16,228 nt of DNA, taken from positions 1 to 16,228 of the forward strand of contig CAAFHY010000117.1 of the NCBI GenBank assembly GCA_900762805.1, written 5' to 3'. The position numbers and the translations under genes are program-made. Positions 8,800 to 9,228 of the stretch are shown here, piece after piece. Position 1 is the first letter of the stretch; each line of letters opens with the position of its first letter. The notes under the pieces are model-generated. The model did no database searches, had not been told where the DNA came from, and worked only from the letters and a program-made list of their open reading frames with translations. The stretch comes from Oscillospiraceae bacterium (GTDB lineage Bacteria > Bacillota > Clostridia > Oscillospirales > Ruminococcaceae).

Positions 8800-9228
8800 A
8801 TGGCTGAAGAGATCAAAACCAACGAAGCAGTTGCCGAAGAGGCCGCCCCGAAGAAGGCCGTCCGCAAGCCGGCTGCCAGGAAGGCAGAGAGCGAAGCGGC
8901 CGAAAAGAAGGCTGCCCCCAAAAAGACAGCCATGAAGGCTGAGGGAGAGGCCGCTGAGAAGAAGGCTGCTCCCAAAAAGACCGCCGCCAAGAAGGCTGAG
9001 GCTCCTGTCGAGGAGGTCAAGCCGGAGACCAAGCCGGTGAAAAAGGCCGAGGCCATGCTGACCATCCGCCTGACCCGCGGCTTCTCCCACAGGCTCGACA
9101 ACCAGATCGCCACGGCGAAGTCCATGGGTCTTCGCAAGGTCGGCGATGTGGCGCATCAGCCGGACAATGCTGCGACCCAGGGCAAGGTCAATGTGATCCG
9201 CCACATGGTCGAAGTCACCAAAGAATAA
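8800..9228 (+). CDS. rpmD: 50S ribosomal protein L30 with an 85-residue Lys/Ala/Glu-rich N-terminal extension
   Basis: L30 is a small 23S rRNA-binding protein of the large subunit, usually about 60 residues. Here residues 86-142 (MLTIRLTRGFSH to the end) form the whole canonical L30, with G-L-R-K-V near 104-108 and the usual C-terminal H-M-V-E-V. Residues 1-85 are low-complexity, roughly 25 Ala, 20 Lys and 16 Glu with no aromatic residue, and include an 18-residue duplication (30-47 and 48-65). AAGGAGG at 8784-8790 lies nine bases before the ATG at 8800, while no such site fits the internal ATG at 9055, so the extension is probably translated. It resembles histone-H1-like disordered tails; its function is unknown. 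Confidence 0.93.
   Translation: MAEEIKTNEAVAEEAAPKKAVRKPAARKAESEAAEKKAAPKKTAMKAEGEAAEKKAAPKKTAAKKAEAPVEEVKPETKPVKKAEAMLTIRLTRGFSHRLDNQIATAKSMGLRKVGDVAHQPDNAATQGKVNVIRHMVEVTKE
8887..8994 (+). repeat. Two tandem 54-bp units inside rpmD (18-residue duplication)
   Basis: The units at 8887-8940 and 8941-8994 encode E-x-E-A-A-E-K-K-A-A-P-K-K-T-A followed by M-K-A or A-K-K. The proteins are nearly identical, but the DNA differs at many third positions (for example GAAGCGGCCGAAAAG against GAGGCCGCTGAGAAG). That points to an older duplication kept at the protein level, or to convergent low-complexity composition, rather than a recent slippage event. Confidence 0.75.

What the first reader, a model, noticed from the sequence alone, without database searches (positions are those of the whole stretch)
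8800..9057. L30 carries an 85-residue histone-H1-like N-terminal extension
Canonical bacterial L30 is about 60 residues and fits entirely into residues 86-142 here. The added 85 residues are mainly Ala, Lys and Glu with regularly placed Pro, contain no aromatic residues, and include an 18-residue duplication. A strong ribosome binding site (AAGGAGG, 8784-8790) at correct distance serves the long start; none fits the internal ATG at 9055. L30 lies on the solvent side of the 50S subunit, so a disordered charged tail could reach rRNA, neighbouring ribosomes, the membrane or the nucleoid. That role is speculation.
Basis: partly seen in the sequence, partly recalled or inferred. Interest (0 to 1): 0.72.

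Follow-up and report, generated by a model that had tools for sequence, protein, structure and literature searches.

The report
Lysine-alanine tail on ribosomal protein L30
A Clostridia bacterium makes ribosomal protein L30 with a long, floppy, lysine- and alanine-rich tail at its front end; the tail is real, is shared by a branch of relatives and also occurs in distantly related bacteria, and it probably grips ribosomal RNA, which has not been shown.

Summary
The L30 gene (8800-9228) encodes 85 A/K/E/P-rich residues before a 57-residue L30 core. Its start, 14 nt after the S5 stop, has a strong ribosome-binding site. 24 distinct tailed rows, window included, fall in one Clostridia clade (28 rows, support 100/99), with tails of 14-141 residues. 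Between close species the tail changes by indels (35 gap codons against 0 in the core), while its amino acids are as constrained as the core's (pN/pS 0.12 against 0.20). A like tail occurs on the same terminus in a gammaproteobacterial order (18 of 27 measurable loci have it with a start codon) and on the C-terminus of L30 in another Clostridia branch. Neighbouring operon genes in the same loci lack such a segment, except one L17. AlphaFold gives a folded core and a disordered tail. Most likely it is a low-specificity electrostatic rRNA-binding arm beside 5S rRNA and 23S H39-H42/H89, where the Borrelia uL30 extension sits; this step is inferred. L30 N-terminal extensions, and H1-like tails on ribosomal proteins, are known kinds; I found no description of the recurrent A/K/P tail on bacterial L30 in the open papers searched.

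The parts
8285..8785 (+). rpsE (S5), gene upstream of L30
   Evidence: Pfam S5 N and C domains
8784..8790 (+). ribosome-binding site AAGGAGG of the long L30 start, overlapping the S5 stop
   Evidence: sequence; 7-base in-register match; duplex -11.6 kcal/mol
8800..9228 (+). rpmD, tailed L30, 142 aa
   Evidence: ORF; PF00327
8800..9054 (+). N-terminal tail, 85 residues rich in A/K/E/P, predicted disordered
   Evidence: composition; AlphaFold block means 43-51 for residues 1-80; pN/pS in relatives
8800..8847 (+). acidic first 16 residues of the tail (net -4); the rest is net +10
8875..8985 (+). 54-nt tandem repeat, 2.1 copies, encoding the 18-residue duplication; P0001 has one more copy
9055..9228 (+). 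canonical L30 core, 57 residues plus stop
   Evidence: PF00327 residues 88-137; AlphaFold block means 93-95 for residues 91-140; PDB L30 chains align from residues 82-104 onward
9055..9057 (+). internal in-frame ATG (Met86) with only a weak upstream site (AAAGG, 9042-9046)
   Evidence: 6% of 1906 internal codons match as well
9243..9683 (+). rplO (L15), gene downstream of L30
   Evidence: Pfam L15/L27A

Best explanation
The window's L30 is made from the S5-proximal start with an 85-residue disordered tail. Shown by sequence: tail and core form one open frame behind a strong RBS; the tail was present in, or recurrently gained within, one Clostridia clade; its length drifts by indels, including repeat gain and loss, while its amino acids are kept by purifying selection. 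Inferred: the basic part (net +10 after an acidic first 16 residues) acts as a low-specificity electrostatic arm that lies on rRNA around the L30 site (5S rRNA, 23S H39-H42/H89). It would help capture or stabilise that junction during 50S assembly, as other basic disordered r-protein extensions are thought to do, with the acidic cap limiting off-target binding.
For: Start: the S5-stop-to-core distance is 2-47 nt in 87 of 88 distinct untailed rows and 56-438 nt in the 24 tailed rows, and the long start lies 13-15 nt after the S5 stop in 21 of the 24 (exceptions L174, L167, L128; the untailed exception is L052 at 93 nt). Clade: 24 tailed rows inside one 28-row clade, 100/99, five changes. Selection: six pairs, tail pN/pS 0.12 (Fisher p about 1e-14) against 0.20 in the core, 35 against 0 gap codons. 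Recurrence: the same tail type in a gammaproteobacterial order, 18 of 27 measurable loci with a start codon, tail pN/pS 0.34, or 0.29 without a pair whose start was miscalled; C-terminal tails in L068 and L069. Specificity: in the same loci 25 of 119 distinct L30 ORFs carry an A/K/P segment, against 0 of 137 L18, 0 of 140 S5 and 0 of 156 L15. Disorder. Location precedent: Borrelia uL30 extension (PMC10618245, passages). Basic disordered extensions in 50S assembly (PMC2672003, passages).
Against: No experiment was run. The tail is a polyampholyte (16 E), less basic than the Arg/Lys/Gly-rich extensions that penetrate rRNA (composition given in PMC2672003). Four clade members do without it, so it is dispensable there. 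The acidic cap is absent from the gammaproteobacterial tails (first 16 residues net positive in 20 of 20 listed, one with a doubtful start). The A/K/P composition equally fits DNA, mRNA or polyphosphate binding (AlgP, PMC9239181). In the gammaproteobacterial pairs the tail is less constrained than the core (0.34 against 0.10).
Confidence: 0.42

Rival explanations
1. Ribosome-to-nucleoid or ribosome-to-ribosome tether: the tail reaches outward from the 50S and binds DNA, mRNA or other ribosomes non-specifically, like the KPAA tails of AlgP and PhaF that are thought to tie granules to the chromosome.
For: Composition close to H1/AlgP-type tails; KPAA peptides bind DNA in vitro and the AlgP tail is needed for granule positioning (PMC9239181, passages). 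Tails up to 141 residues could reach beyond the ribosome (inference).
Against: Net charge is only +6, and the first 16 residues are acidic in 19 of 20 clade tails of 47 residues or more. The start of the tail lies beside rRNA, if Borrelia is a guide. Four of the 24 clade tails are short (14-33 residues).
Confidence: 0.18
2. Borrelia/bL37-like pocket filler: the tail folds on the ribosome into the H39-H42/H89/5S pocket and stabilises the region near the peptidyl transferase centre.
For: Same protein and same terminus; the Borrelia extension occupies this pocket; the profile of tailed L30s matches PDB chain 8fmw_Ab (100 aa, Borrelia by recall) from its residue 31, which includes about 13 tail positions (E 1e-8 for the whole chain).
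Against: The tail alone has no PDB sequence match up to E = 10; no helix predicted; repeats and free length variation do not suit a shaped pocket; no aromatic residues.
Confidence: 0.12
3. Tolerated passenger: a repeat-prone A/K-rich stretch that grows by slippage and is kept because it does no harm.
For: Tandem repeat and repeat-number difference between window and P0001; four untailed members within the clade; weaker constraint than the core in the gammaproteobacterial pairs.
Against: Tail pN/pS 0.12 in the Clostridia pairs and 0.29-0.34 in the gammaproteobacterial pairs; recurrence on the same protein in two phyla, with none on the adjacent genes.
Confidence: 0.15
4. Polyphosphate, Mg2+ or stress-linked regulation: the lysine tail binds polyphosphate or is acetylated, changing translation under starvation.
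For: An H1-like KPAA protein associates with polyphosphate granules (PMC9239181, passages).
Against: No link to polyphosphate genes was examined here.
Confidence: 0.08
5. Annotation artefact: L30 is really made from the internal ATG and the upstream frame is untranslated.
For: An internal ATG with a weak in-register site at 9042-9046; a Met at this place also in L129 and in a distant homologue group.
Against: Strong RBS at the long start, frame and start position conserved across the clade, purifying selection on the tail codons, Met86 absent from 22 of 24 tailed rows.
Confidence: 0.03

Closest known systems
Borrelia burgdorferi uL30 N-terminal helical extension / mycobacterial bL37 (PMC10618245, passages; PDB 8fmw by recall)
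   Same: N-terminal extension of bacterial uL30 before the same core; the paper says such helical extensions occur in other bacterial species too
   Different: Borrelia's is a bent helix in a pocket and the chain is 100 aa; the window's is an 85-residue A/K/E/P repeat tail, predicted disordered, with no sequence match in the PDB on its own
Disordered r-protein extensions in Mycoplasma pneumoniae and other bacteria (PMC9534751, passages)
   Same: Terminal extensions over 20 aa relative to E. coli, mostly predicted disordered, scattered over bacteria, function largely elusive
   Different: The word 'L30' does not occur in that paper's main text; here one protein repeatedly has one kind of tail
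Histone H1-like extensions of mosquito RpS6 and RpL23a (seen only as cited in PMC11764897)
   Same: Lysine-rich, H1-like low-complexity tails appended to ribosomal proteins independently
   Different: Eukaryotic, other proteins; the original papers were not read
Eukaryotic uL30 (RPL7) N-terminal extension
   Same: Same protein family and same terminus; helical extension in the mammalian ribosome (PMC10618245, passage)
   Different: Oriented differently, part of a much longer protein; only weak profile matches (E 0.09-0.19)
AlgP/PhaF KPAA tails and chlamydial Hc2 (PMC9239181, passages; PMC2848022, abstract and outline)
   Same: K/A/P-rich or lysine-rich repeats whose copy number varies between strains
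   Different: DNA- or granule-binding proteins, not ribosomal; HC2 model at 12.8 bits against a cut-off of 40

Membership tests
Ribosomal protein uL30 | L30 domain | tested here: met
   PF00327 38.6 bits, cut-off 23
Ribosomal protein uL30 | NCBIfam bacterial L30 equivalog cut-off (TIGR01308) | tested here: not met
   41.4 bits, cut-off 44.65, residues 87-140; a narrow miss of one model, against the Pfam hit and operon position
Ribosomal protein uL30 | Operon position S5-L30-L15-SecY | tested here: met
Disordered bacterial r-protein extension | More than 20 residues beyond the canonical terminus, predicted disordered | tested here: met
   85 residues; pLDDT block means 43-51 for residues 1-80
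Borrelia/bL37-type uL30 extension | Helical extension | tested here: inconclusive
   No helix in the AlphaFold model, but the alignment was shallow (29 rows) and A/K/E stretches may become helical on binding (inference)
Borrelia/bL37-type uL30 extension | Sequence resemblance of the tail | tested here: not met
   Tail alone: 0 PDB sequences up to E = 10
Borrelia/bL37-type uL30 extension | Occupies the H39-H42/H89/5S pocket | not testable with these tools
   needs a ribosome structure
Histone H1 / HC2 family | Family model match | tested here: not met
   HC2 12.8 bits, cut-off 40
Histone H1 / HC2 family | K/A/P-rich low-complexity composition | tested here: met
   pooled clade tails A 34%, K 27%, P 8%
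Histone H1 / HC2 family | DNA binding | not testable with these tools
   needs a binding assay

The most novel reading that the evidence does not exclude
Bacteria of two distant phyla have repeatedly turned uL30 into a ribosome-borne, H1-like nucleic-acid arm that gathers ribosomes on mRNA or the nucleoid, with its reach tuned by repeat number.
Probability: 0.15. Interest if true: 0.8.

Novelty: new variant of a known kind. Interest (0 to 1): 0.5.

Why it matters
It turns a curious ORF into a comparative system: one small ribosomal protein carries the same kind of tail in two phyla, and at either end, with closely related tailed and untailed species available. That makes the open question of what disordered r-protein extensions are for directly testable. 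It also shows that long L30 genes in these genomes are not simply mis-called starts.

Tried and rejected
Met86 as a fossil of the ancestral start: window and G821 share 'AML' at the junction and G821 has the nearest L30 core in the family search (68%), but the flanking-protein trees put G821 outside the tailed clade, so this was dropped. Operon-wide tailing: the other 28 genes compared with locus L116 have unaligned window ends of at most 12 residues, and in the fetched loci no other operon gene has such a segment except L17 in L005. Proteome-wide habit: a G783 tail as query matched L30 in G783 and G914, one other protein in G266, and nothing in 7 other genomes. That test is weak: it also missed the known tailed L30s of G680, G779 and G885 and the C-terminal tails of G411 and G428. 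A second L30-like hit in G779 (L136) is antisense to a long ORF and was discarded. Long open frames upstream of L30 in several genomes are read-through of S5 in another frame, so the S5-stop-to-core distance was used instead. The test that all tailed rows form one clade (AU test) was not obtained: my script named a dropped row. Genus searches around G779 and G783 returned one genome each. Literature searches for an A/K/P tail on bacterial L30 found none (open-licence papers only).

Rows dropped: 28 of 75 homologues went into alignment A1, chosen by hand, P0007 left out for an odd C-terminus; L032, L033, L057 and L136 lacked a measurable S5-L30 junction and L147 duplicated L107. Rows with 8-10 K/A-rich extra residues (such as L043 and L084) were counted as untailed. 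Of 30 gammaproteobacterial loci, 3 had no S5 in reach; of the 21 with long spacing, L193 and L212 have runs of N in the tail and L210 has no start codon between the S5 stop and the core.

Full report
What is there. The window is a long ribosomal-protein and secY operon. L30 is one ORF, 8800-9228, 142 aa. Residues 88-137 match Pfam L30. The first 85 residues are A25 K20 E16 P7 with no aromatic, His or Cys residue, and carry a 54-nt tandem repeat at 8875-8985. The closest homologue found, P0001 (160 aa), is 97% identical over aligned columns and differs mainly by one extra 18-residue repeat. The long start has AAGGAGG at 8784-8790, overlapping the S5 stop: a 7-base in-register match equalled by 0.4% of 1906 internal codons. 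The internal ATG at 9055 has AAAGG at 9042-9046, equalled by 6%.

Relatives. No whole genome is held for the window. A locus titled 'Clostridia bacterium' (L002) served as entry point. Its class (391 genomes), an order (394) and a family (247; 396) were searched, and the L30 region of the fetched loci was read. 28 of the 396 family genomes were seen to carry the N-terminal tail; loci that were not fetched were not read, so this is a lower bound. The distance from the S5 stop to the L30 core separates two classes: 2-47 nt in 87 of 88 distinct untailed rows (L052 has 93 nt), and 56-438 nt in the 24 distinct tailed rows; the long start lies 13-15 nt after the S5 stop in 21 of these 24. So the start stays put and the frame between start and core has grown.

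History. On a tree of flanking proteins (L18, S5, L15, L6, SecY; L30 left out) of 40 rows, all 24 tailed rows lie in one clade of 28 (100/99), with four members whose extension is only 3-9 residues; five changes are the fewest. One gain and four losses is one reading, several gains another; the root is at the midpoint only and the one-clade test was not obtained. The 16 untailed rows in this tree were chosen by hand. A 99-row tree shows the 18 tailed rows then known in one clade of 22 (SH-aLRT 99), and the two C-terminally tailed rows (L068, L069; 118 and 119 extra residues) elsewhere.

Selection. In six pairs of close species, tail codons give pN/pS 0.12 (338 codons, Fisher p about 1e-14) and core codons 0.20 (342 codons); replacement rates in tail and core do not differ (p 0.86). 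Gap codons number 35 in the tail and 0 in the core. So residues are kept while length floats. Caveats: alignment of repeats can hide differences, and sites are not independent.

Recurrence. Two loci from records titled Gammaproteobacteria (L001, SUP05 cluster; L003) also carry such tails. Of 83 genomes of that order, 75 matched. Among 30 fetched loci, 27 had a measurable S5 junction: 21 have 77-334 nt before the core and 6 have 8 nt; 18 of the 21 have an in-frame start in that space, two hold runs of N and one has no start there. The 20 tails listed are K 33%, A 27%, P 8%. Seven pairs give tail pN/pS 0.34 and core 0.10; without the pair with a miscalled start the tail gives 0.29. Of 68 PDB sequences matched by the tailed-L30 profile, 60 are shown; the bacterial-type L30 chains among them are 55-65 aa, apart from 8fmw (100 aa; Borrelia by recall) and a chain recorded as L33 and L30 together (7asp); the listed L30 chains of 153-155 aa are archaeal by recall. 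Separate gain in the two phyla is therefore the simplest reading; no tree across both was built.

Specificity. In the fetched loci 25 of 119 distinct L30 ORFs contain a 25-residue A/K/P/E/T segment, while none of 137 L18, 140 S5 or 156 L15 ORFs do; one L17 (in L005) does. Some loci were fetched because their L30 frame was long, so the L30 fraction is biased upward; the contrast with neighbours in the same loci is not. A genome-wide look with one tail as query found little, but it also missed known L30 tails and so says nothing firm.

Structure. AlphaFold on 29 rows folds residues 86-142 as strand-helix-strand-helix-strand (pLDDT block means 93-95 for residues 91-140) and leaves residues 1-80 at 43-51 with no secondary structure. 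Within the Clostridia clade the first 16 residues are net negative in 19 of 20 tails of 47 residues or more, and the remainder net positive in all 20 (the exception, L128, has a doubtful start). The gammaproteobacterial tails lack this acidic cap (20 of 20 net positive).

Mechanism. The nearest relative with a solved extension, Borrelia uL30, sends it into a pocket of 23S H39-H42, H89 and 5S rRNA (PMC10618245, passages). The window's tail joins the core at the same end, so its first contacts are most likely rRNA (inference). Basic disordered extensions of other 50S proteins are proposed to act in assembly (PMC2672003, passages). I therefore favour a low-specificity electrostatic rRNA arm, at about 0.4. 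Constraint on residues with length freedom and dispensability fits this; so do DNA or mRNA tethering and polyphosphate binding, as for AlgP (PMC9239181, passages), which cannot be excluded.

Known or new. Bacterial r-protein extensions are common and mostly of unknown use (PMC9534751, passages). uL30 N-terminal extensions and H1-like r-protein tails are each known. What I did not find in the open library is a disordered A/K/P tail recurring on bacterial L30. I rate it a new variant of a known kind.

Noticed in passing
L188:1168-1656 (-), genome G266: A 162-aa ORF with an N-terminal A/K/P tail on an unrelated, unidentified domain, in a genome whose L30 is untailed.
   Followed up: no
L068 and L069: L30 with 118-119-residue A/K/P/E-rich C-terminal tails in another branch of the same order; P0032, P0034 and P0048 look alike.
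   Followed up: partly
L177, L178, L179 (genome G993): Three different L30 loci on three contigs of one assembly, perhaps a mixed genome bin.
   Followed up: no
L005: L17 of a Pseudodesulfovibrio MAG carries an A/K/P-rich segment.
   Followed up: no
P0037-P0043, P0045-P0047, P0049, P0051-P0066, P0069-P0072: A further group of 138-174-aa L30s with a T/K/A-rich tail ending in a linker such as 'KKANGP' followed in most by Met at the core start; a possible separate gain, and a candidate for two L30 forms.
   Followed up: no
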